DNA of 64,000 nucleotides from a virus. This document shows positions 1,405 to 14,663 of the stretch, in pieces (position 1 is the first letter of the stretch; each line of letters starts with the position of its first letter). A model generated the notes under the pieces. That model had not been told where the DNA came from. It made no database searches and was given only the letters and a program-made list of their open reading frames with translations. The translations under genes and the position numbers were made by a program. The stretch spans positions 1 to 64,000 of IMG/VR virus record IMGVR_UViG_3300044705_000115. One strand, written 5' to 3'.

Positions 1405-3111
1405 TTAGACCTCGCCCCGGATGAAAGCCGACATCGCGGCCGGAGCGCTGGTGTCGAAGCCGACGACATCCATGCTTCCGCTGTCGTTCGGATCGGCGAT
1501 GCTGAAATCGGTCGCGGTCATGCCGCAAACGATCAGCTTGGCGTCGATGCCCGATTTCTCGCGGTACTCGCGGAGCGCCTGCATGGGATGGATGTCGCCC
1601 GCCCACGTTTCGTTGTCGGTGTAGACGCAGAAGGCATCGACCTCGCGTTCCTCCTGCATCGCGTAGATCATCGGCAGGGCGCAGTCGGTCATGCCAACGT
1701 GACTGAGCCGGTCGAACTCGGCAGCGACATCGTTCAGCCGCATCGACGGCGTGACCGCCATCGGCGTGAAGCCCCGCTCATCCCGGTAGCCGCTGAAGTT
1801 GCCGTGACCCTGGCCAACCCCCAGCGAGTGCTTGATCCCACCGGGGATTTCGGAGCCAGCGAAGGCTACGGTCTCGTAGCGCGACTCCGAGCGAGCGGTG
1901 ACCATCGCCATGACCGCAGCGGCTTCCAGAGGAAGCAGGCCACCGAGTCCGTAGCGACCCCCAGCGTGGCGCATCGAGTTCGAGACATCGACAGCCAACA
2001 GGAACCGCTTGCCGGTCGGCTCGATGTTCTCGAAGGCCGAGTAGAAGGCGGCGTTCAGCGCATCGACGATCTGCGCCACCGGACTCCAGGTGTTGCCGCC
2101 CCGGTCGCCGTGGCCACTCTTGTACGTCATCAGCGCTGAGAGGACGGTCAGCGGGTGGACGCGAGCGCGACGGATGCGCTCACTGTCGCCGAGCTGGGCG
2201 ATCACCTTCTGGGTCGCCTCCCCGAAGGGGTCGAGCAGTCCCGAGCGCGTCATGTTGCCGAGGTTGCGGATCAACGCCGTCATCGGCATGTCCTCAAGCA
2301 GCGCCTCCTGAACCACCGGATCGGTCAGATGCTCGGAGCGGATCGCCTCACGGGGCAGCTTGTAGTCGCGGATCAGGTTCGCCGAGTTGCGCGGCGACTC
2401 CGCAACCTGGGCCATCCTGAAGCCCTCGATGACGCGCAGCACATGCGAGGGCGCGTCCAAGTCTCCGATGGGCACCGGCTTCTTGGTCGCGTTGCCGGTC
2501 ACGAACTCGAACAGTTCGGCGTGAGCGATCGACGGTGCCTTCGGATGGGCCAGCCGCAGGATGTCGCGGTGAGACCAGCCGTCGCGCTGGCGATACTTGA
2601 TGAGCTGGTAGGCCAGCTTCTCTGCGGGCCGGCCCGTGTACCAAGCGGCGACGCCGTGCCGCGCGGCCGGACCCCAGCCGCGGAACTGCTCCATGAAAGC
2701 CACGAAGTGCAGGATGTGGGTGCCGGTGCGGGCGACGCGCGGCAGGGCCTTGAAGGCGGCGCGGCGCGTCCCCTCGTCCTTGAAGGAGCAGGCCATTGCG
2801 AGGCAGAACAGCGCCGTGTCGTTGTCGCGGGCGAGGCCACGGTCGCTGACCTCGGCGATCAGCTCGACCGTGCGCTCGCCGTCCTCTGCGAGGCAGGCAT
2901 CGAGCGCCGCGACATTGCCCTTGACCATCTCGCGCTGCCCGACGTAGTAGGAGCCGCCTTCGGCGCCTAGGATCAGGAACCGGCGCAGGCGCGTCCAGAT
3001 GTCAACCTCCCAGGCGAAGCCGCCAGCGTTATTGGCGACCTGGCTCGAACCGGGGATCGGCTCGGACTGGGGGGTCTTGCGCGTCGAGTGATCGCGCAGG
3101 TAGTTGCTCAT
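1405..3111 (-). CDS. Ro60/TROVE-domain RNA-binding protein
   Basis: Bacterial-type Ro60 (Rsr), a ring-shaped RNA-binding protein that binds Y RNAs and misfolded RNA. 568 residues. The N-terminal HEAT-repeat TROVE region (about 20-350) carries FAWEVDIWTRLRRFLILG and the SYYVGQRE block. The C-terminal von Willebrand A-like domain has MIDAS residues DVSNSM (about 375-380), T at about 475 (GMTDCALP) and D at about 499 (YTDNETWAG). The linker PTGKRFLLAVDVS matches the family. The start ATG has GGAAGGAG upstream; a perfect 7-bp hairpin precedes it. A tRNA-like Y RNA lies immediately upstream on the same strand, which strongly supports the assignment. No PNPase gene is in the window. Confidence 0.95.
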   Translation of the reverse strand: MSNYLRDHSTRKTPQSEPIPGSSQVANNAGGFAWEVDIWTRLRRFLILGAEGGSYYVGQREMVKGNVAALDACLAEDGERTVELIAEVSDRGLARDNDTALFCLAMACSFKDEGTRRAAFKALPRVARTGTHILHFVAFMEQFRGWGPAARHGVAAWYTGRPAEKLAYQLIKYRQRDGWSHRDILRLAHPKAPSIAHAELFEFVTGNATKKPVPIGDLDAPSHVLRVIEGFRMAQVAESPRNSANLIRDYKLPREAIRSEHLTDPVVQEALLEDMPMTALIRNLGNMTRSGLLDPFGEATQKVIAQLGDSERIRRARVHPLTVLSALMTYKSGHGDRGGNTWSPVAQIVDALNAAFYSAFENIEPTGKRFLLAVDVSNSMRHAGGRYGLGGLLPLEAAAVMAMVTARSESRYETVAFAGSEIPGGIKHSLGVGQGHGNFSGYRDERGFTPMAVTPSMRLNDVAAEFDRLSHVGMTDCALPMIYAMQEEREVDAFCVYTDNETWAGDIHPMQALREYREKSGIDAKLIVCGMTATDFSIADPNDSGSMDVVGFDTSAPAAMSAFIRGEV

Positions 3112-3125
3112 CTGGGGCGCTCCTT

Positions 3126-3148
3126 CCGGGTCAGAGTGGAAGACCCGG
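3126..3148 (-). promoter_or_regulatory. Leader hairpin of the Ro60 mRNA
   Basis: CCGGGTC and GACCCGG form a perfect 7-bp stem with a 9-base loop directly before the GGAAGGAG ribosome site of the Ro60 gene. It could modulate translation; no evidence beyond position. Confidence 0.5.
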
Positions 3149-3223
3149 CGAGCGGGTGATGCAGACGGGGGTGATTTTCTCCAATGAAAAGGTAACCCGC
3201 CTGCTTCGGCCCGCCGGGCCAAA

Positions 3224-3380
3224 GCTATGTCGCGCTGAGCGGGATGTGCGCATCGACGTTTAGCGCTCTACCAACTGAGCTACCGCTGCCTTTCGGCGGC
3301 GGACAGGACTCGAACCTGCGACCTCTCTCTTAGCGTGAGATAACCGATCCGCTTCGGCTCAGCGCGTGCGCGAGCATAGC
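3224..3380 (-). ncRNA. Y RNA with tRNA-like module (YrlA type)
   Basis: About 157 nt, read on the minus strand from 3380. 5' half: outer stem GCTATG, Y stem GCGCTGAGC, bulge CGAAGC, GGAT, then a small 7-base-loop hairpin resembling an anticodon arm (3326-3340), a T-arm with loop TTCGAGT (3303-3319), an acceptor-like stem closed by a GAAA tetraloop (3283-3302), a D-arm GCTC..GAGC (3265-3280), then the 3' strand ATCC, GCTCAGCGC, CATAGC. The tRNA parts are therefore in circularly permuted order and the Y stem replaces the join between D and anticodon arms. This is the known YrlA layout, and it sits next to a Ro60 gene. Ends are inferred from the base pairing. Confidence 0.85.
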
Positions 3381-3499
3381 GAACTCGGAGCGGGTTGGTG
3401 CCTGCGGGGTTCGTTGTCAAGGCGATAACCCGCAAACTCCGGCTCCGAGTCCACTTCTGACCCGGCTGCTCCTCCCAAAGGAGCGCCGAGCGCCGCAGT

Positions 3500-5703: not shown

Positions 5704-8700
5704 CTATCCGTCGATGCGTTTGACCCTCGTCTTGGCGTCGATCAGGCCGAGGCTGCCCGACTTGAACCCGACCAGCGTTTTGCCCTCAGGCCCAGGCCCG
5801 ACGACGGAGGCGATGGTGCCGTCTTTGTCGGTGATGACGGCGCCGGGCTCGAGTTCTTCGAGCCGGTAGTGCATGTACTTCCCTTTCGACCCCCACTTCG
5901 ATGTGTAGCCGTTGAGCTCGGAGGTCGGCACATCGTCCATCGCCTGACCAGCTTCCGCCAGCACCTTTTCGACATCGGGCGACCACTGCGACTGCAGCGC
6001 CGCCGTGGGGTCGAGCTTCTGCGTGTCTTTCAGAACCAGCGTCGATGGCAACTGGTTGAGGCTGCCCCCCTCGTCCTTGATGATCGTGTTGCCATCGACC
6101 GTGTGGGCAACGACCTCGTTGGCACCGTTCGTCGTCGTGTACTTCTCCCCCGGCTTCAGGTCGCTGACGACGAACTCGCCGGGCATTGGTTTCACGCCCG
6201 CTGCGGGTTTCGCCGGAGCCAGCGGCCAGTCGCTCGTCGTGGCGCCGGGTGGCGCTTTGTGGAAGTTGCCCTGGGCGTCCTGAAGAACCACGCCATCGAG
6301 CGATTTGGCGATGACGGTGTAGTCCTTCAAGTCGTTACCGAAGAACGTTTCGCCCTCGTGGATGCTTTCGATGTTCTCGCTGGCGAGCGCCTTCTTCAAC
6401 TCGTCATCGCCCTTCGCTGTCAGCTTCACCTTGTCGGGGATGAGCTCCGCTTTGACCGAGAACTTGGCGCCGTCGGGATCGGTCATCTCGACCACTGCGT
6501 CTTCGGGGTGCTTGCCTTTGGACGCACCGACCGTGTAGGCGTAGCCAGCGATGGTGACCTTCGTGCCGACCGGCAGTTTCCCGATCGGCGTCTCGTCGCT
6601 GTTCGGCAGCAGACCCTTGGCGGCATCTGCCTGGCCAGGGTCCGTACCCGGCCCCGGCAGCGGCCCGGTGGCGTCGTTGAAGTCGGCGGTTACGGCGCGG
6701 CCACGCAGCTTCGGGTCGGCGCTGTAGAGGAGCTGGCCGTCGGTGACGATGACATCGCCGTCGTTGGCCTTGACCTTCCACAGCTTGCCTTCTTTGCCGC
6801 GGAAGATCGTTCCCACCGGCATGTCGCCGATCTTGTCGTGGGTGTACTTGCCGCCGCTGCCGTGCTTGGAGATATACGCCTCGAAGCCACCCTCCTCGAC
6901 ATGGGAGGGCATCCCCGAACTGCTCGGCGCTGGCGACTCGGCGTGGATCGCCGGGTTCTTGCCGATGAAGGTGATCGGCTTGTCGGGGTAGCTCCAAGCC
7001 GTTTCGGAGGCGGAGAGGTGGCCGGACGGCTGCACCATCGCCACCGTCAGGTTGTCCTCCGGGCCTCCCTTGGCCTGGACTTTGAAAAGCTCCCCGCCGT
7101 CCTTGAAGTAGTCGCCCACCTCCAGGTTGCTGAGGGTCGTCGAGTCCTCGGGTTTGAGCTGGTCGTGGGGGATCGCTTTCTCGCCGAGTTCGTTCTTCGC
7201 CCACAGCTCCGTGACCTTCGCATCGTCGGGGTAAGCCGTGACATCGCCGCTGGCCAGGTTCTTGACCGGCTTCTTGCCCGGCTCAGTCGATGCATTGGGA
7301 TCGCCGAAGACGGCTTCGTAGACATTCCCGGTCCAGTCCACGAACTTGTCCCCGTGTTCGAGGTCGGCAACCTGAAGCTCGGCGCCGGGAACGTAGTCGT
7401 CAGCGCTGAACGGCGCGTCCGCTGACTTCGGCGTGTTCTTGGGCTCGTCAGGCGCCGGAGAGGCTTCGGCATCGAGCAGACGGCGCACCACCTTGGACTT
7501 GGTCGAGACCCCCGCCTCGCCCGTGTCGAGGTTCTTCCACAGCACTTTGTTGCCCTCGGTGCCGGTGACCAGATAGGGGCGCTGAGACTGGCCGCGGCCC
7601 CCGTGGAAGAGGTCGCCGACAGCGAGATCGCCGACCTTGATTTTTGAGCCGATCTTGTGCGCCTGCGGGTCGTAGAGATCAGCGAGAGCTTCGTCGTCGG
7701 GCGAGATCGCCACGACTTTGCCGCCGGACGGTTTCGCCTTGATCGTCCCATCCTTCAAGACCTTCGTGATCGTGTGCTTCTTGCCCTGATAGGGCAGCGT
7801 CATCCCTTTCTGCGGGGTGAGCTGCGGCGCAGCGACATCCTCTTCGTCGGGGACGTAGCCCTCCTTGGCGACGAGAGTCGGCGTCTTGTAGTCGGTGTTG
7901 ATCGTCCCGACTTTCCCCGTCATCAGGTCGAGAATCTGCGTCTTCGCGCCGTTGATCTGGGCTTTGACTTCGTAGGGGTTGCCGTTGACCTTGAATTTCT
8001 CCCCCTCGGCCATCTGGCCGGTGAACTTCTCGCCCGTGCCGTTCACCCAGGCGTTGGGGTCGAACAGCTCCGACTCGGCCTGCAGCTTGTGCGGGTCGGG
8101 CAGGTCGTAATGCTCGCTCAGCTTGAAGTACTGGTTCTGGCCGCCGCCCTCGAAGTTGTAGCTCTCCCCAGTGAACTTGCCGTTCTCGATCTTCACGTAG
8201 CGCAGGCCGAATCCGGTGTCGTCGCCGGGGTCCTCAACGATCAGGTAGAGCGTGCCTTTCAGCCCCATCATGTAGTCGCCGGGCTTCAGTTCCGACTCCT
8301 TGGCGACGGTCGCTTTCGGCGTGCCGTCGGCGTTCTTGAATGCCCACGGCCCCGACTTGTCGAGCTCTGCCGGAGTCCACGGCTTGCTCTGCTGCGATGG
8401 CAGCTTGTCGGCGAAGCGAGCCGAGAACTCGGCGGCCTCCGCCGGCGGGTCGATCCAGAGCTTCTGCGCCTGGCCCTGCATCTGAACATCGGGCGGCGCT
8501 GGCGGGGTCGGCAGCATCTCGCCGTTCTCGATCGCGTCGCGGAAGCGTTCGATGGTGGCGCCGCCGGAGGGCGCTTTGGTGACGCCCATCAGCCACTTTT
8601 TCTGGTTCTCGGTGATGTCGTAGAGCGAGAAGTACATCGACCGCTTGTCGATCTTGATCTGCTCCGCGACGCTGATCTCCAGCTCGCCGACGAAGTGCGT

Positions 8701-10212
8701 CTGCCCTGGGATCGGCTGCGCCGAGTAGGACGACATCAGGACATGGCGGATCGCCAGCGGCGTAGCGAGCGTGTTGTTGCCGAACTGGAAGTTGGCCCCG
8801 AAGTTGAAGCTCTGCGAGAGGCCGGACATGATCGGCTTCTTGCCGTCGATCATGGCCTGCCAGTAGCTCGGCGCGTTCGTGTTCTTGTGGAAGACCGCGA
8901 CATCCGGCGAGCGGGTGCGGTTGTAGAGGTCCCAGGCGACGATGTCTTTGTGGCGGCCCTGCAGCGCCAGCGCCAGTTTGCGCTGCTCGTCCAGCTTGCC
9001 GAGTTCGGTTTTGCCGCCCTTGAACGCCTTGAACATCGAGGCCAGCGAGAGCGTGAAGCCGCTCGACGACCCATACTGGGCGGAATAGGCGTTCTTGACG
9101 ATTGACTGGATCGTCGCCTCGTAGTCCTTGTAGCTCTCGTCGATCAAGTCCTTCGCCTTGCCCGGCGAGTATTTGCCGAATCTCTGCATCAGCTCGGCGT
9201 AATGCTCCTGATCGACCGAGCCGAAGCGCTGCCACTCCTCCGGCTTGATCTTCGAGTGGGCGGGGATCGCGATGGAAGGGTCATGGGTCGTCGGATCGAC
9301 GTAGGGATCGACGGTCGCCACGCCGGATTCGATGCCCTTGGCCTTGTCCGATTTCAGAGCTACCGGCTTGCCCTCCTTCTTGGCGTCAGCGATGAACGCC
9401 TTGCCGCCCTCAAGGGAAGGGCTGAAGACGCCGGTTTCCGCGTCTTTGAAGCTCTTGCCGATGCGGTTGGCGATGACCTTCCCGCCCGCAAGGTGGGCGA
9501 CCTGCCACTCCTTGCCGTCTCCCGAGATGAAGGTCTCGCCGACCTTGATGAACTCGCCCGCCTTCGGCGTCCCTTTCGGCCAGCGGGGGTGCAGGGTCGG
9601 GTCCCACTTGCCCTCCATCAGCGCCTCCGCGAGGCTGGCGGCGGCGCTGCCGCCGAGGGCGAAGCTGTATCGGTCGCCCCCCCAGGCGAGCGTCACGCGC
9701 GAGAACGCGACCGGGATCGGCTTCTCGATATTCGGTCGCCGGCGGGCGTAGTCGAGCGTCATGTGCGGCGTGAAGCCGTGGTCGCGGCTCGGCGGCAGGC
9801 CCGCCTGGTCGAGCGTATCGACGAGTTCCTGCCGCAGCGGAGGGAGGTCGGGAAGATCGACCGAGAGGTAGGTGACCGGCCCAGCGATGAACTGACCGAC
9901 GCCGCTGATCTCTCCGCGCATCTCTTCCGGGCACTTCGCGGCCCAGGTCGCTACGACTCGCAGCGCGTCTTTGAGGTCGAGATCAGCGGCCTTCCCGAGG
10001 AACGCGAGCGTCACATGGAGTTCATCGGCGTCCTCGCCGTCGGCGATGGCCAGCTCGGCCGCCGTGGCGGCGTCGGGGAAGAGAGCGACCATCGCGCCTT
10101 GCTTGGTCGCCGCCGTCGCGGCCTCCATAAGGGAAGCGGCAGCGGTGTCAGCGAGCAGTTCGTCGGGGTCGCCGTCAGCCTCGACCGGCTCGAAGACAGG
10201 TTCGCGCAGCAC
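5704..10212 (-). CDS. Giant multidomain protein: 2H phosphoesterase, ART-like domain, beta repeats
   Basis: 1502 residues from a GTG at 10212, chosen because it follows the upstream stop; an in-frame start at 10308 would overlap that gene. About residues 60-190: 2H-phosphoesterase (LigT-like) with the two HxT motifs HVTLAFLG (about 66) and HMTLDY (about 150). Then the WDPTLHPRWPKGTPKAGEF linker common in actinophage head proteins. Residues about 320-520 have an ADP-ribosyltransferase-like pattern ending in an E-x-E (GELEISV, about 510). From about 640 to the end are some 10 beta-rich units of the form L.vGD.F...G..Y.V. Probably virion-associated; the enzymatic activities are inferred from motifs only. 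Confidence 0.75.
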   Translation of the reverse strand: MLREPVFEPVEADGDPDELLADTAAASLMEAATAATKQGAMVALFPDAATAAELAIADGEDADELHVTLAFLGKAADLDLKDALRVVATWAAKCPEEMRGEISGVGQFIAGPVTYLSVDLPDLPPLRQELVDTLDQAGLPPSRDHGFTPHMTLDYARRRPNIEKPIPVAFSRVTLAWGGDRYSFALGGSAAASLAEALMEGKWDPTLHPRWPKGTPKAGEFIKVGETFISGDGKEWQVAHLAGGKVIANRIGKSFKDAETGVFSPSLEGGKAFIADAKKEGKPVALKSDKAKGIESGVATVDPYVDPTTHDPSIAIPAHSKIKPEEWQRFGSVDQEHYAELMQRFGKYSPGKAKDLIDESYKDYEATIQSIVKNAYSAQYGSSSGFTLSLASMFKAFKGGKTELGKLDEQRKLALALQGRHKDIVAWDLYNRTRSPDVAVFHKNTNAPSYWQAMIDGKKPIMSGLSQSFNFGANFQFGNNTLATPLAIRHVLMSSYSAQPIPGQTHFVGELEISVAEQIKIDKRSMYFSLYDITENQKKWLMGVTKAPSGGATIERFRDAIENGEMLPTPPAPPDVQMQGQAQKLWIDPPAEAAEFSARFADKLPSQQSKPWTPAELDKSGPWAFKNADGTPKATVAKESELKPGDYMMGLKGTLYLIVEDPGDDTGFGLRYVKIENGKFTGESYNFEGGGQNQYFKLSEHYDLPDPHKLQAESELFDPNAWVNGTGEKFTGQMAEGEKFKVNGNPYEVKAQINGAKTQILDLMTGKVGTINTDYKTPTLVAKEGYVPDEEDVAAPQLTPQKGMTLPYQGKKHTITKVLKDGTIKAKPSGGKVVAISPDDEALADLYDPQAHKIGSKIKVGDLAVGDLFHGGRGQSQRPYLVTGTEGNKVLWKNLDTGEAGVSTKSKVVRRLLDAEASPAPDEPKNTPKSADAPFSADDYVPGAELQVADLEHGDKFVDWTGNVYEAVFGDPNASTEPGKKPVKNLASGDVTAYPDDAKVTELWAKNELGEKAIPHDQLKPEDSTTLSNLEVGDYFKDGGELFKVQAKGGPEDNLTVAMVQPSGHLSASETAWSYPDKPITFIGKNPAIHAESPAPSSSGMPSHVEEGGFEAYISKHGSGGKYTHDKIGDMPVGTIFRGKEGKLWKVKANDGDVIVTDGQLLYSADPKLRGRAVTADFNDATGPLPGPGTDPGQADAAKGLLPNSDETPIGKLPVGTKVTIAGYAYTVGASKGKHPEDAVVEMTDPDGAKFSVKAELIPDKVKLTAKGDDELKKALASENIESIHEGETFFGNDLKDYTVIAKSLDGVVLQDAQGNFHKAPPGATTSDWPLAPAKPAAGVKPMPGEFVVSDLKPGEKYTTTNGANEVVAHTVDGNTIIKDEGGSLNQLPSTLVLKDTQKLDPTAALQSQWSPDVEKVLAEAGQAMDDVPTSELNGYTSKWGSKGKYMHYRLEELEPGAVITDKDGTIASVVGPGPEGKTLVGFKSGSLGLIDAKTRVKRIDG

Positions 10213-10228
10213 GCGAGGAAGGGTAGGG

Positions 10229-10411
10229 CTAGAGGCGGCTGATCTGAATCGACTCGCCGCACTTGATGCACGTAACGGCCCCAGCGCCGCGAGATTTGGC
10301 TGTCGCAAGCACCGCCTCTGAGACTGCGTGACGACCTCCCTCCGCGCACTCCAGGCTGTCCGCCTTCATGCCCTGCTGCTTCAGCGAGACTCCCGGTCCT
10401 TCGGCTTTCAT
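10229..10411 (-). CDS. Small protein with CxxC near C-terminus (60 aa)
   Basis: 60 residues ending TCIKCGESIQISRL, a half zinc ribbon. No family recognised. It lies 10 bases after the Lys/Arg-rich gene and ends just before the giant gene. Confidence 0.5.
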   Translation of the reverse strand: MKAEGPGVSLKQQGMKADSLECAEGGRHAVSEAVLATAKSRGAGAVTCIKCGESIQISRL

Positions 10412-10582: not shown

Positions 10583-10881
10583 CGCGGCACGTTCTGGGAG
10601 CGAACGGTGAAGGAGCGCTCCTCCGCGCCCTGGTGATTCCCAGCCCCATCGAAGGCGTACCACCACCGGCCCGACCGATCAACGATGATCGTCGCCCTGT
10701 AGACCCCCGTTTCCACTTTGGAAACAGTTGGCGTCAGGTAGTCAGAGGCGGGTGCTTTCGGTGGTCGCACCGTGCAGACGACCACTTCGGGATCAACCCG
10801 TTCCTTGGTGGTCGCGTCGGTGAAGACGACGGTCAGAATCGGCTGGTCGCCGATGTCGTAGATGTTCTCCTGGTCGCTCAC
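10579..10881 (-). CDS. Ig-like phage structural protein (100 aa)
   Basis: Beta-sandwich pattern: N-terminal YDIGDQPILTVVFTDA, middle VSKVETGVYRATIIVDRSG, then RWWYAFDGAG. Similar small proteins accompany tail or head genes in actinophages. GTG start overlaps the stop of the long tail protein (GTGA). Confidence 0.6.
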   Translation of the reverse strand: MSDQENIYDIGDQPILTVVFTDATTKERVDPEVVVCTVRPPKAPASDYLTPTVSKVETGVYRATIIVDRSGRWWYAFDGAGNHQGAEERSFTVRSQNVPR

Positions 10882-13800
10882 GAGAAGCCGTCCGTCATCG
10901 ACAGGTTAGTCGCGGCGCGGTCGTCCGTGTCGCTGCTGAGCGCCGCGATGTCCTCGAGGGAGGTCTTGGTCGAGAGCAGGTCTGCCAGCGCCAGGATCGC
11001 TTTGTGGGCCGCCATGCCTTCCGGCCTGACCCGCTCTTCAAGGTCGGTGAGCTCGTGGAGCGCCTTGACCTGATCCCGTCGCAGGCCCTCTGCGATCGAC
11101 AGCGCCTCGTGGATGTTGACGCCGAGGTTGTGGAGGGTGGTGACCGCATCGTCGAAGGCTGCGGCGTCCTTCGGCGTCAGGCCCAGGCCGCGGCTGCGGA
11201 AGTCGAACGGCAGGATGTGGTCGCGCAGAGACAGGGCGTAGCTGCGGCGCATCTGGTCGGTGAAGGAAGCCGTGTCGCGGCGCCGGGCGGCGGCGCTGGC
11301 ATTCCGCCCGTCAGCAGCGGTCGCCGCGTCGCGGATGCCCTTGCCGGGGCCGCTCCGCCGGCCATCGACCAGAGCGAAGGCGGCTTTCAGTACTTCGGCC
11401 ACATGGTTGCTCCGGGCGTCCTGGGGGATGACCATCTCGTGCAGCGACTTTGAGATCGAGCGCCGCGCCAGCTCGCTCGCCGCGATGCTCTCCGGCCGTC
11501 GCAAGCCGATGCCGCGCCGTACGTGTTCGCCGAGAGCGAGCAGATCGCCGAGGTGCTTGGCGATGGCGCTCGCGTGGCTGTCGGGGACGAAGATGCCCTC
11601 TCGCATGAGGCGCCGGAAGCCGAGCGAGCGGTGATCAGAGACCGTCGCTGCATCTGCCCGTTTGAAGACCGCCGCCCACATCCGCTCGAGCGCGTCTTTG
11701 ACGACTGCGTGCTCGTGGGGGTTGGTGCCTTTGGCGGCCAGGGCTTCGATGGCGTCTTCGAGGGAGAAGAGGTCGGCCACGTTGACGACAGCACCCCAGG
11801 CCCGCTCGCTTTCGTCGGTCAGCACTAGCGCCTCCGCCAGGTGCTTGCCAGCGGCGACCCGGGCGGCATCCAGCAGGCCCAGGGAGTCCGCTGCACGAAG
11901 CTTCGCCGCCCAGGCCCTCGCCACCGCATCGGCGACCTCGACCATGTTGCCGATGCCGATCCCCTCGATCGGGTGGATGGCGTCGGAGACACCGACCATC
12001 TCGGAGAGGCCTTTGCCAACGGCGAGGCGCCGGGCGGCGCTGACGCTGAGCGAGTCGCTGGTGTGAATTCCCGCTGCGCGGCGCACGACTGCGGCCACGG
12101 CTGCCGCGTCAGCCCTCCTCAGCGCCGTAGAGAGCCTGCGCGAGTCCACGGGGGAGAGATGTTCGTCGAGGGCGACATGGGCCGCCCAGACGCTCACAAG
12201 CGCGTCGGAGAGATCGGCGATCTCGTCGATTTCGAGTTCCTGGCCCAGCTTGACGATGAAGTCGTCGCTGAGGGGAATCGAGTCCGCGAGCGAGCGCCGC
12301 GCGATCCAGGCATGGATCAGCAGCTCTTCCAGCAGCGCCGCGTCGGCGATCCGCTTGGATCCGCTCCGCCTCAGCGAGTCGGTCGGGCTGGCAGCGTCTT
12401 TCCGTCGGACGCCGGGGCGCAGGTTGTCAGCATCGGCGGTGGCGAAGGCGTCTTTGCGGGCCACGCCGGCGCGGCGATGCATCACATCGACGATGGTCGC
12501 CGCCTCCGACTTCCGCAGGCCCAGCGTCCGCGCCAGTTTGTCGGTCAGGGCCACCGAGTCCGCCCGCTTCCCGCCCGCCGTGCGTTTGATCGCGTCGGCG
12601 AGGGCGATGATGTCTTTGCGCTGCGGGCCTGCCGCGCGTTTCAGCAGGTCGCTGAGCGCCTGGGTATCGCTGCGCTTCATGCCAGGCCGCTTGCTCCGCG
12701 ACTCCGAGACCGAGAGCAGCGCATCGGTGCGTTTCATCTGGTCGGCGCCTTTGCGCGACTCCGAGGGCGCCACGCTGTCTTCGAGTTTCAGCGTTTTCGC
12801 TTCGCCAGCAGCAGCCTTGAAGCCGATCTGGATGCCGATCGTCGCTTCCGCTTCGCTGACCGTGAAGTTCAGTTCGCCAGTCGCCGTTTCTTTCGTCGGC
12901 ACGACCTTGCGGGCGACGTACTGGGCGTGGGTGCTTTCCACGGCATCGTCGTGGGTCAGGATCGACGCTGCAGGGTAGGCGGTCACTGGGTGCCCGACGG
13001 TGCCACCCACCCAGGCCAGAAGCAGCTCGTCGGCGAATCCGGTGGTCAGCCCTTTCGTTTTCAGCGTGGTCGATGAGGCATTGGTCTGGTTGGTCGAGGT
13101 GTCCAGTCCGACTTTGCCGCCCGAGCGCGGGCGGAAGGACATCACGACAGCCTGGATGCTTGCCGATCCAGACCATTCGATTTTGAGGCTCTGAGAGCCG
13201 TCGTCTTCCTTCCAGAAGACCGCCTGGCGGTCGGTCGAACTCGCTACATCGACCGCCTTTTCCCAGCCAGCAGTGAAGCCGGTGATCGCTGGCGGCGGCG
13301 TCGTGTGGAAGTTGACGAGGACGACGAGCAGATCGCCTTTTTCGGCCCCAGTTGGCCGCGTATAGGTTTTCGAGCTGGAGACGCCTTCGTTGAATTCCGC
13401 CTTCTTGCCCGTCATGAACCAGCGGGCCGGGCGGACGCTGAAGGAGACGTTGGCACGTTCGGCCGAGGTCGCTGCGGTGGCGATCATGGTGCCGGTCGCG
13501 CCAGCCTTCGGCAGGATCGCCGAGGCAACCATGAGCGAGCCGCCGTCGCCTTCCGCCGTCGTGTTGTCGATGCGCTCGTTGATCGACGTGACGGAAGCGT
13601 TGGTCTGAGCGGAGAACTCGGCCGTGCCGGTCGCATCGGGCAGCGAGCCAGCCGAGGCGAAGAAGATGAGGTCGTTATCGACTTTCGTCGTGTGGCCGAA
13701 GACCTGCACTTCTTTGCTCGCGGCCTGCGTGTTGAATTCGCCTTCGTCGAAGGGGTTGTCGCGATCGAAGGTGCCAGCCTTGACGGCGATGATCCGTGCC

Positions 13801-14663
13801 ATCTGGTGATCGCCCGTGTCGGGGACGGTGCGCCCAGGCGCCGTCGACGTGGCGACCTGCCAGAGCACAGTCAGCCGCGTGTTCCCTTTCAGGTTCGATT
13901 CGCCGAAGACATTGCTCCAGCCCGAGATCGTCGGCACCGTTCCCGACCCCTGCGATTCGATGAACATCAGCAGCAGGTCGTCCAGCACGACCCCAGCGGG
14001 CATCCCCGGCGTGATCGTGCCGGTGCCAGCGGCGATGGCACCGACAGCGCGGACTTCCGGCGCCGTGGTCGTGAGCTGGAAGGCGCCTACGTTGGCGACG
14101 CGGCCAGCGGTGCCAGCGATGCCTTCTGACCAGAAGAAGATCGCAGCCCTGAGGGCTACCGATTCCGGCACAGCCCCCGTCGTGCTGAAGGCTTCCGACC
14201 AGGCACCGCCCGTTTTCCGCCAAGCCGTGAGTTTGCCGCTCGGCTCCCAGCTCAGAGCAAAGGAGTCGCCCGCAGCGAGGCCGACTCCGGTTTTTTCCGT
14301 GCCTGCCGGGATGCTGGTGCCGAACAGCGAGAGGGTGCAGGTCGAGGTGCCGGTGCGGATGATCGCCAGCCCTGCTTTCTGGTTTTCCCCAGCGACGCCG
14401 AACTGCATTTCGACCGCTTGGCTGGTGGCTGGCAGAACCGGGATTTCAAAGCCGATTAGGCCTCCGACAGTCCAGACCTGAGCGGTTTTGCGCCGTGCGC
14501 CAGCCGAGCCTTTTTCAGCAGTGATCGTCCATCCGGTAGAAGTCGCCTGGCCGCTGTTGGCTACAGCTTCGGAGGCTTTTTCCCATTCACCAGCGAGCGG
14601 GTTTTCGGTGCGCTTCAGCGTGTCGATGACCCCGAGGCCTTCGACCTGTTCTTTGACCGTCAT
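10878..14663 (-). CDS. Large tail protein with beta N-half and helical repeat C-half
   Basis: 1261 residues. The first 620 or so are Ser/Thr/Gly-rich beta structure typical of tail fibre or minor tail proteins, with recurring units around VGAIAAGTGT and FSVRPARW. From about 630 to 1240 there are roughly 28 short repeats of 18-22 residues built on hRRxDxhxhxDxhxRxxG, which look like a helical rod. No catalytic motif seen. It follows the 149-aa tail protein gene. Assignment as tail fibre is inference from composition and context. Confidence 0.65.
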   Translation of the reverse strand: MTVKEQVEGLGVIDTLKRTENPLAGEWEKASEAVANSGQATSTGWTITAEKGSAGARRKTAQVWTVGGLIGFEIPVLPATSQAVEMQFGVAGENQKAGLAIIRTGTSTCTLSLFGTSIPAGTEKTGVGLAAGDSFALSWEPSGKLTAWRKTGGAWSEAFSTTGAVPESVALRAAIFFWSEGIAGTAGRVANVGAFQLTTTAPEVRAVGAIAAGTGTITPGMPAGVVLDDLLLMFIESQGSGTVPTISGWSNVFGESNLKGNTRLTVLWQVATSTAPGRTVPDTGDHQMARIIAVKAGTFDRDNPFDEGEFNTQAASKEVQVFGHTTKVDNDLIFFASAGSLPDATGTAEFSAQTNASVTSINERIDNTTAEGDGGSLMVASAILPKAGATGTMIATAATSAERANVSFSVRPARWFMTGKKAEFNEGVSSSKTYTRPTGAEKGDLLVVLVNFHTTPPPAITGFTAGWEKAVDVASSTDRQAVFWKEDDGSQSLKIEWSGSASIQAVVMSFRPRSGGKVGLDTSTNQTNASSTTLKTKGLTTGFADELLLAWVGGTVGHPVTAYPAASILTHDDAVESTHAQYVARKVVPTKETATGELNFTVSEAEATIGIQIGFKAAAGEAKTLKLEDSVAPSESRKGADQMKRTDALLSVSESRSKRPGMKRSDTQALSDLLKRAAGPQRKDIIALADAIKRTAGGKRADSVALTDKLARTLGLRKSEAATIVDVMHRRAGVARKDAFATADADNLRPGVRRKDAASPTDSLRRSGSKRIADAALLEELLIHAWIARRSLADSIPLSDDFIVKLGQELEIDEIADLSDALVSVWAAHVALDEHLSPVDSRRLSTALRRADAAAVAAVVRRAAGIHTSDSLSVSAARRLAVGKGLSEMVGVSDAIHPIEGIGIGNMVEVADAVARAWAAKLRAADSLGLLDAARVAAGKHLAEALVLTDESERAWGAVVNVADLFSLEDAIEALAAKGTNPHEHAVVKDALERMWAAVFKRADAATVSDHRSLGFRRLMREGIFVPDSHASAIAKHLGDLLALGEHVRRGIGLRRPESIAASELARRSISKSLHEMVIPQDARSNHVAEVLKAAFALVDGRRSGPGKGIRDAATAADGRNASAAARRRDTASFTDQMRRSYALSLRDHILPFDFRSRGLGLTPKDAAAFDDAVTTLHNLGVNIHEALSIAEGLRRDQVKALHELTDLEERVRPEGMAAHKAILALADLLSTKTSLEDIAALSSDTDDRAATNLSMTDGFS

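What the first reader, a model, noticed from the sequence alone, without database searches (positions are those of the whole stretch)
1405..3380. Phage Ro60 protein with its own adjacent tRNA-like Y RNA
The TROVE protein has an intact vWA MIDAS, and right upstream on the same strand lies an RNA with a T-arm, a GAAA-capped acceptor stem and a D-arm in circularly permuted order, closed by a 9-bp Y stem with a 6-base bulge and a further 6-bp outer stem. Established: bacterial Y RNAs of YrlA type mimic tRNA and pair with Ro60. Inference: the phage brings a complete RNA-quality-control or RNA-decay adaptor module. It also retains an anticodon-arm-like hairpin (loop ACGCTAA).
Basis: partly seen in the sequence, partly recalled or inferred. 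Interest (0 to 1): 0.85.

Follow-up and report, generated by a model that had tools for sequence, protein, structure and literature searches.

The report
Phage Ro60 with three Y RNAs
A bacterial virus carries the Ro60 RNA-binding ring protein together with three small partner RNAs, one of which is a tRNA look-alike that keeps all four tRNA arms, including an anticodon arm that the published description of this RNA class (as far as it could be read here) lacks.

Summary
The minus-strand ORF 3111-1405 is a complete Ro60 (TROVE and vWA domains, all five MIDAS residues, modelled ring fold). Models built without the window find A and C at 43 and 47 bits and B at 114 bits; real tRNAs in the window reach only 41. 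Homologous Y RNAs lie beside Ro60 in many phages and bacteria: 227 on Ro60's strand against 2 on the other in 178 loci, with strong covariation. B is YrlA-like but below the Rfam YrlA cut-off (36.5 against 69 bits). It carries an anticodon arm that the Rfam consensus lacks: in 60 comparable elements 70% keep all three checked base pairs (14% after shuffling), with a conserved 7-base loop. So B is a circularly permuted four-arm tRNA joined to the Ro60-binding stem. Related loci also hold the other opening: tRNAs in normal order with the Y stem inserted between D and anticodon arms. Phage Ro60 with Y RNAs is known; the anticodon arm and second topology look like new variants. Expression, Ro60 binding and RNA decay are untested.

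The parts
1405..3111 (-). Ro60 (TROVE + vWA) protein, 568 aa, intact MIDAS (D375, S377, S379, T475, D499) and H189 (equivalent of human H187)
   Evidence: Pfam and PHROGs hits, PDB relatives 2nvo/1yvp, AF2 model pLDDT 88.9 with TM-score 0.85 (query) and 0.91 (target) to Xenopus Ro in complex with RNA, conservation
3380..3453 (-). Y RNA A: minimal (stem-bulge) Y RNA, short loop, GCCGGAG...GGGUUAUC / CACCAACCCGC signature
   Evidence: R1 model without the window 43.2 bits, E 1.3e-7; Rfam nematode sbRNA model 40.4 bits, over its cut-off 38; fold z -4.9
3230..3366 (-). Y RNA B: tRNA-like (YrlA-type) Y RNA with a five-way junction of Y stem, anticodon arm, T-arm, capped acceptor and D-arm
   Evidence: R2 model without the window 114.1 bits, E 4.5e-30, next best 41 bits; Rfam YrlA 36.5 bits, below its cut-off 69; MFE fold contains all arms
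3357..3366 (-). B: lower Y-stem helix, 5' strand CGCGCUGAGC (pairs with 3240-3231)
   Evidence: 10 bp
3231..3240 (-). B: lower Y-stem helix, 3' strand GCUCAGCGCG
3345..3352 (-). B: upper Y-stem helix, 5' strand GCGGAUCG (pairs with 3255-3248, one G.G mismatch)
3248..3255 (-). B: upper Y-stem helix, 3' strand CGAUGCGC
3326..3340 (-). B: anticodon-arm-like hairpin UCUC-ACGCUAA-GAGA (loop 3336-3330)
   Evidence: in MFE fold; class covariation with pairing-blind register 85% of cells paired, 70% all three pairs (controls 54% and 14%)
3303..3319 (-). B: T-arm GCAGG-UUCGAGU-CCUGU
3283..3302 (-). B: acceptor-like stem CCGCCGCC / GGCAGCGG (one A.C mismatch) closed by a GAAA tetraloop (3294-3291), no free CCA end
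3265..3280 (-). B: D-arm GCUC-AGUUGGUA-GAGC
3142..3220 (-). Y RNA C: minimal (stem-bulge) Y RNA, GGGCCGAAG...GGGUUACC / CAUCACCCGC signature
   Evidence: R1 model without the window 47.4 bits, E 1.5e-8; fold z -5.6

Best explanation
The locus is a phage-encoded Ro ribonucleoprotein module: the Ro60 ring and, directly upstream on the same strand, three Y RNAs. Each Y RNA would dock on the outside of Ro60 through the conserved bulged-C Y stem. A and C are minimal Y RNAs that would mainly stabilise Ro60 and gate its RNA-binding surface. B carries a tRNA look-alike domain (all four tRNA arms, circularly permuted, acceptor end capped) as the effector handle. By analogy with Deinococcus RYPER and Salmonella YrlA, that handle is read by host proteins that recognise tRNA or by host PNPase, so that the RNP steers structured or damaged RNA to decay or repair during infection. 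Shown by sequence: protein family, three RNAs, structures, co-orientation and conservation. Inferred: transcription, binding, effector and purpose.
For: Ro60 identity and fold; conserved Y-RNA-contact histidine and MIDAS. Covariation of minimal Y RNAs from other loci (19 sequences): 87% of cells paired against 66.5% dealt out and 33-45% slid, 71 against 25 double-sided changes. Models built without the window find A, C and B, and nothing else of the kind in 130 kb. 227 elements on Ro60's strand against 2 on the other in 178 loci. Literature: Ro60 site = 7-bp helix, one bulged C, opposite bulge (PMC4726728); Rsr is tethered to PNPase by Y RNA, and the YrlA tRNA-like domain is modified by DusA/TruB (PMC8394870); a Listeria phage has an Rsr-like protein in its virions and strongly transcribed non-coding regions within 2 kb upstream (PMC12282133).
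Against: No RNA or binding data. No clear sigma-70-type promoter or terminator in the region; enrichment of -10-like hexamers before Y RNAs across loci is weak. No PNPase or RtcB in the record. The Y RNA models find nothing convincing in Listeria phage A511, a relative of the one Ro60 phage with transcript data, whose Rsr belongs to a far more diverged class.
Confidence: 0.62

Rival explanations
1. Anticodon-nuclease decoy or sensor: the anticodon arm of B is bait. Host tRNA-cutting toxins attack or are blocked by the Ro60-bound tRNA mimic, sparing the phage's own tRNAs (21 in the window). Not exclusive with the best explanation.
For: The arm keeps a 7-base loop with U33, R37 and A38 and compensating stem changes. 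Wolin and colleagues suggest the YrlA tRNA-like domain could inhibit an anticodon nuclease competitively, in a Salmonella YrlA that was not a substrate (PMC7790460). The phage carries many tRNAs.
Against: The three bases at 34-36 vary freely (31 different triplets in 60), which does not point to one nuclease. The window's loop has C, not U, at 33. Many Y RNAs lack the arm.
Confidence: 0.2
2. Cis-acting leader: the three stems are the 5' untranslated region of the Ro60 mRNA, and Ro60 binds them to repress its own synthesis; they are not separate RNAs.
For: They fill the gap to within about 30 bases of the start codon with only 9-13 bases between them, and no strong promoter was found for each.
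Against: In Forza, Sixama and GMA2 Y RNAs also lie downstream of Ro60 inside tRNA arrays, and several other loci have them downstream of Ro60. A tRNA domain with conserved tertiary bases is not needed for a leader.
Confidence: 0.12
3. Degenerate or tandem tRNA genes that only look like a Y RNA.
For: The Rfam YrlA model also scores junctions of real tandem tRNAs at 27-32 bits.
Against: R2 gives 114 bits against at most 41 for real tRNAs. Y-stem covariation, capped acceptor, and the position next to Ro60 in phages and bacteria.
Confidence: 0.02

Closest known systems
YrlA RNAs (Rfam RF02553; Chen et al. 2014, Wang et al. 2018)
   Same: Ro60-binding stem as the two ends; T-arm, capped acceptor stem and D-arm in circularly permuted order; encoded beside Ro60
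   Different: Extra anticodon arm between Y stem and T-arm (13-base insertion against the Rfam consensus); 36.5 bits against cut-off 69; by my recollection of Wang et al. the Y stem takes the anticodon-stem place in YrlA, so four-way rather than five-way junction
Minimal Y RNAs: Deinococcus Yrn1 (RF01053), nematode stem-bulge RNAs (RF01656), vertebrate Y RNAs
   Same: Bulged C, CCGA(A/G) 5' motif, GUUAYC after the upper helix, CAxCAAC 3' motif; A passes the nematode family's cut-off, as do RNAs beside Ro60 in two bacterial MAGs
   Different: Phage and bacterial origin; the pyrimidine-rich loop and La-binding tail of vertebrate Y RNAs were not looked for. PMC4726728 calls bacterial Y RNAs not homologous to vertebrate ones; the shared motif speaks for a common Ro60 site but does not decide between descent and convergence
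Deinococcus radiodurans Rsr / Y RNA / PNPase (RYPER)
   Same: Ro60 ring plus Y RNA; Rsr (2nvo) is the best PDB sequence match
   Different: No PNPase in the phage record; tethering not testable here
Other phage Ro60 proteins (342 INPHARED records; Thermus phage phiLo Ro60 structure 9l5y; Listeria phage CKA15)
   Same: Phage Ro60, often with Y RNAs in the unannotated gap upstream
   Different: This phage's Ro60 is at most 45% identical to named phages and about 56-59% to one uncultured virus, L028

Membership tests
Ro60 / TROVE-vWA protein | TROVE and Ro60 vWA domains over curated cut-offs | tested here: met
   128.6 and 192.1 bits against cut-offs 23 and 27.7
Ro60 / TROVE-vWA protein | MIDAS DxSxS...T...D in the vWA domain | tested here: met
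   D375, S377, S379, T475, D499, invariant
Ro60 / TROVE-vWA protein | Ring fold of Ro60 | tested here: met
   AF2 pLDDT 88.9, pTM 0.88; Foldseek TM 0.85/0.91 to 1yvp_B
Ro60 / TROVE-vWA protein | Binds Y RNA and misfolded RNA ends | not testable with these tools
   Only the contact histidine (human H187, window H189) could be seen as nearly invariant; its role in Y RNA binding is from my knowledge
Y RNA (Ro60-bound stem) | Paired 5' and 3' ends with two helices, bulged C and 3' bulge | tested here: met
   Window RNAs; covariation in relatives
Y RNA (Ro60-bound stem) | Encoded beside Ro60, conserved in relatives | tested here: met
   227 against 2 elements by strand in 178 loci
Y RNA (Ro60-bound stem) | Expressed as a stable RNA bound to Ro60 | not testable with these tools
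   No RNA data; only the Listeria phage CKA15 precedent
YrlA (Rfam RF02553) | Score over the curated gathering cut-off (69 bits) | tested here: not met
   36.5 bits; none of 19 related loci searched passes either
YrlA (Rfam RF02553) | Permuted T-arm, capped acceptor, D-arm closed by Y stem | tested here: met
YrlA (Rfam RF02553) | No anticodon arm: Rfam consensus has no helix between Y stem and T-arm | tested here: not met
   UCUC-ACGCUAA-GAGA at 3340-3326, conserved class-wide
Nematode stem-bulge RNA (RF01656) | Score over the curated cut-off (38 bits) | tested here: inconclusive
   A 40.4 (over), C 36.0 (under); read as a shared Ro60-binding stem, not as membership in a nematode family
RYPER (Ro60-Y RNA-PNPase) | Y RNA tethers Ro60 to PNPase | not testable with these tools
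   No PNPase/RNase PH domain in the 130-kb record; host unknown

The most novel reading that the evidence does not exclude
Y RNA and tRNA form one modular RNA: a complete tRNA whose D-arm/anticodon-arm junction holds the Ro60-binding stem. It exists in two circular permutations, opened at the Y stem with a capped acceptor (as in the window) or opened at the acceptor like a normal tRNA with a capped Y stem (relatives, e.g. L118, L183). The anticodon arm is kept because cellular factors (anticodon nucleases, tRNA-modifying enzymes or the ribosome) read it, which would make phage Ro60 particles sensors or decoys for tRNA damage.
Probability: 0.25. Interest if true: 0.85.

Novelty: new variant of a known kind. 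Interest (0 to 1): 0.6.

Why it matters
Ro60 and its Y RNAs are a human autoimmune target whose bacterial and viral roles are poorly known. Showing that tRNA-like Y RNAs often keep a full anticodon arm, and that the same parts occur as a tRNA interrupted by a Ro60-binding stem, gives a concrete structural basis for the proposed link between Ro60 and tRNA damage. It also gives covariance models that recognise RNAs which Rfam's YrlA model misses. Phages with tractable hosts (Mycobacterium smegmatis C1 phages, Gordonia BearBQ, Microbacterium FuzzBuster) carry the same RNAs, so the questions are directly testable.

Tried and rejected
Rfam YrlA alone as proof: rejected because real tandem tRNAs score 27-32 bits with it. 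Tandem degenerate tRNAs: rejected. Orphan Y RNAs in phages without Ro60 (suggested): Xanthomonas phage Olaya has a diverged TROVE protein next to its RNA, so not an orphan; the Caulobacter and Acinetobacter hits were not followed. Own promoters for each Y RNA: only a weak excess of TANNNT at -15 to -6 (51 against about 32 expected). Y RNA models on Listeria phage A511, to match published strongly transcribed regions: R1 nothing, R2 only weak tRNA-type matches. RtcB and RNase PH in the phage: none. Tandem-array artefact for the non-permuted form: 10 or more of 16 checked cases have no T-loop upstream and no D-arm downstream. The main papers (Chen 2014; Sim 2020) are not held, so prior mention of an anticodon arm could not be excluded.

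Full report
Setting. The window is the first 64 kb of a 130,043-base virus record. The minus-strand ORF 3111-1405 is Ro60: TROVE 4.9e-37 and vWA_Ro60 8.7e-57, PHROG RNA-binding protein 1.8e-71. PDB relatives are Deinococcus Rsr, Xenopus Ro and human Ro60. The AF2 model (pLDDT 88.9, pTM 0.88) matches Xenopus Ro in complex with RNA at TM 0.85/0.91. The five MIDAS residues are invariant in alignments of 21 and 31 phage proteins. The histidine equivalent to human H187 (window H189) is nearly invariant; its role in Y RNA binding is from my knowledge. 342 named phage records carry a homologue, nearly all at 33-46% identity, most of those fetched with an unannotated gap of 300-500 bases in front.

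Three Y RNAs. In the gap 3499-3112 a permissive Rfam scan found a YrlA match (36.5 bits, cut-off 69) and two matches to the nematode stem-bulge RNA family, 40.4 and 36.0 bits with cut-off 38. The nematode match at 3383-3451 was the only non-tRNA hit over cut-off in the whole window. Inspection of 23 related loci showed a repeated signature: lower stem, GCCGA(A/G), upper stem ending GGUUAYC, then the complementary upper strand, a CAxCAAC-type bulge and the lower strand. An alignment of 19 minimal Y RNAs from other loci, window left out, has 87% of cells paired (66.5% dealt out, at most 45% slid), 13 of 17 pairs with changes on both sides, and 71 double-sided cells against 25 expected. The model from it (R1) finds C at 47.4 bits (E 1.5e-8) and A at 43.2 bits (E 1.3e-7) as the top hits of the window and only these in the 130-kb record. 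Folding z-scores are -4.9 (A) and -5.6 (C).

Generality. R1 gives 105 hits in 79 viral and 93 in 80 bacterial Ro60 loci, all on Ro60's strand. An independent two-helix scan finds 227 elements on Ro60's strand against 2 on the opposite strand in 178 loci. Arrays hold up to about seven copies. The closest relative, L028, has six R1 hits in front of Ro60, prophage prophiGD43A-5 has six elements, and in Forza, Sixama and GMA2 further copies sit in the tRNA arrays.

The tRNA-like RNA. B folds into a five-way junction: Y stem, anticodon arm, T-arm, acceptor stem capped by GAAA, D-arm. The MFE contains every arm (-58.5 kcal/mol, against -56.6 for the drawn structure). It carries the bases that hold tRNAs together (U8, A14, G15, G18, G19, A21, C48, UUC, A58; read directly from the sequence). 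A model (R2) from 19 sequences of other loci gives B 114.1 bits, E 4.5e-30; the next best, real tRNAs and their junctions, reach 41 bits. It is the only such RNA in the record.

The anticodon arm. The Rfam YrlA consensus has no helix between Y stem and T-arm; B has a 13-base insertion there. I scanned all loci for Y-stem-linked tRNA-like domains without using this hairpin as a criterion. Elements fall into two groups by the distance from GUUA to the T-arm. With 18-21 bases (n = 60), and with the register chosen from loop letters only, 85% of the three-base-pair cells are paired and 70% of elements have all three, against 54% and 14% after dealing out the 3' strands (maximum of 2000: 65% and 28%) and 34-54% of cells in slid registers. 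With shorter spacers (n = 17) none has all three. Loop consensus: C32 in 42, U33 in 52, A/G37 in 56 and A38 in 49 of 60; bases 34-36 vary freely. The choice of register favours these loop letters, so the loop counts are inflated to some degree; the pairing counts are not. A separate test with several loop lengths shows the excess at 7 bases and, more weakly, at 9, which is the 7-base hairpin less one pair. Alignment A4 used for R2 was selected for this hairpin, so its own covariation is not independent evidence for it. No YrlA hit over the Rfam cut-off was seen in 19 related loci. Xanthomonas phage Olaya, whose neighbouring gene is a strongly diverged TROVE/vWA protein, has the same arm, UCGA-CUGUUAA-UCGA.

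A second opening of the same circle. In other loci the parts occur in normal tRNA order with the Y stem inserted between D-arm and anticodon arm: acceptor 5', D-arm, Y 3' strand, short cap, Y 5' strand, anticodon arm, T-arm, acceptor 3'. A classifier finds 51 permuted and 29 non-permuted elements, 3 both; with shuffled flanks the rates are 1.2% and 2.1% per element, i.e. about 2 and 3 expected among 147. About 22 of the 29 have 7/7 acceptor pairs and lengths of 120-146 nt. Most of the 16 checked ones have no T-loop upstream and no D-arm downstream, which excludes a tandem-array illusion for those. L118 2782-2904 folds exactly this way by MFE. L183 ends in ...CGGGUCC-A-CCA. This form is not in the window.

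Mechanism. Shown: protein, RNAs, structures, conservation, co-orientation. From the literature: Ro60 binds a helix with a bulged C and an opposite bulge (PMC4726728); in Deinococcus the Y RNA tethers Rsr to PNPase, and the Salmonella YrlA domain mimics tRNA (PMC8394870; PMC7790460). Inferred: the phage RNP uses host PNPase or host tRNA-binding factors, since no PNPase or RtcB gene was found in the record. A phage precedent is Listeria phage CKA15, where an Rsr-like protein is in virions and three strongly transcribed non-coding regions lie within 2 kb upstream (PMC12282133); my models find nothing convincing in its relative A511, so that class is too diverged or different.

Novelty. That phages carry Ro60 and Y RNAs is known (Chen et al. 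2014 as cited in PMC12282133; PMC7824862; PDB 9l5y). I could not read Chen 2014. The review that I could read describes only D, T and acceptor arms, and the Rfam model agrees. So the four-arm form, and above all the Y-stem-in-tRNA form, are likely new variants, subject to that check.

Noticed in passing
L118 2782-2904, L183 2682-2805, L165 2696-2818, L057 2246-2391, L080 2153-2427, L061 3532-3804, L064 4765-4881: tRNA-like RNAs in normal (not permuted) order with a Ro60-binding Y stem inserted between D-arm and anticodon arm; 29 in 24 viral and bacterial Ro60 loci in the classifier, about 3 expected by chance.
   Followed up: partly
L190 1640-2956 (Xanthomonas phage Olaya): Gene annotated hypothetical protein is a strongly diverged TROVE/vWA protein with a permuted tRNA-like RNA with anticodon arm right upstream; blastn also points to similar RNAs in Caulobacter and Acinetobacter phages.
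   Followed up: partly
L013 1726-1804; L025 2143-2351; record ON637770.1 near 100197: Y RNA regions deposited as tRNA genes: tRNA-Thr in prophiGD43A-5, pseudogene tRNA-OTHER in Rhodococcus phage Trina, tRNA-Ser in Microbacterium phage Big4.
   Followed up: no
window 5704-10308 (-): 1534-aa protein with a 2'-5' RNA ligase / 2H phosphoesterase domain (PF13563, 4e-11) near its N terminus, encoded upstream of the Y RNAs on the same strand.
   Followed up: no
window 10878-14663 (-): 1261-aa protein whose C-terminal half repeats a degenerate motif of the type RKDA...LTDSL; no Pfam family.
   Followed up: no
L126 2860-2933, L165 1677-1742, window 3383-3451: Rfam's nematode stem-bulge RNA model passes its own cut-off on Y RNAs beside bacterial and phage Ro60: the Ro60-binding stem looks the same from phages to worms.
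   Followed up: partly
L016 4991-5047 (Gordonia phage GMA2): Unannotated Pistol ribozyme match (56.8 bits, cut-off 34.5) within the tRNA array.
   Followed up: no
window 3264-3259 and relatives, just after the D-arm: GCUAAA(C) is strongly conserved between D-arm and upper Y strand in the tRNA-like class; no role assigned.
   Followed up: no
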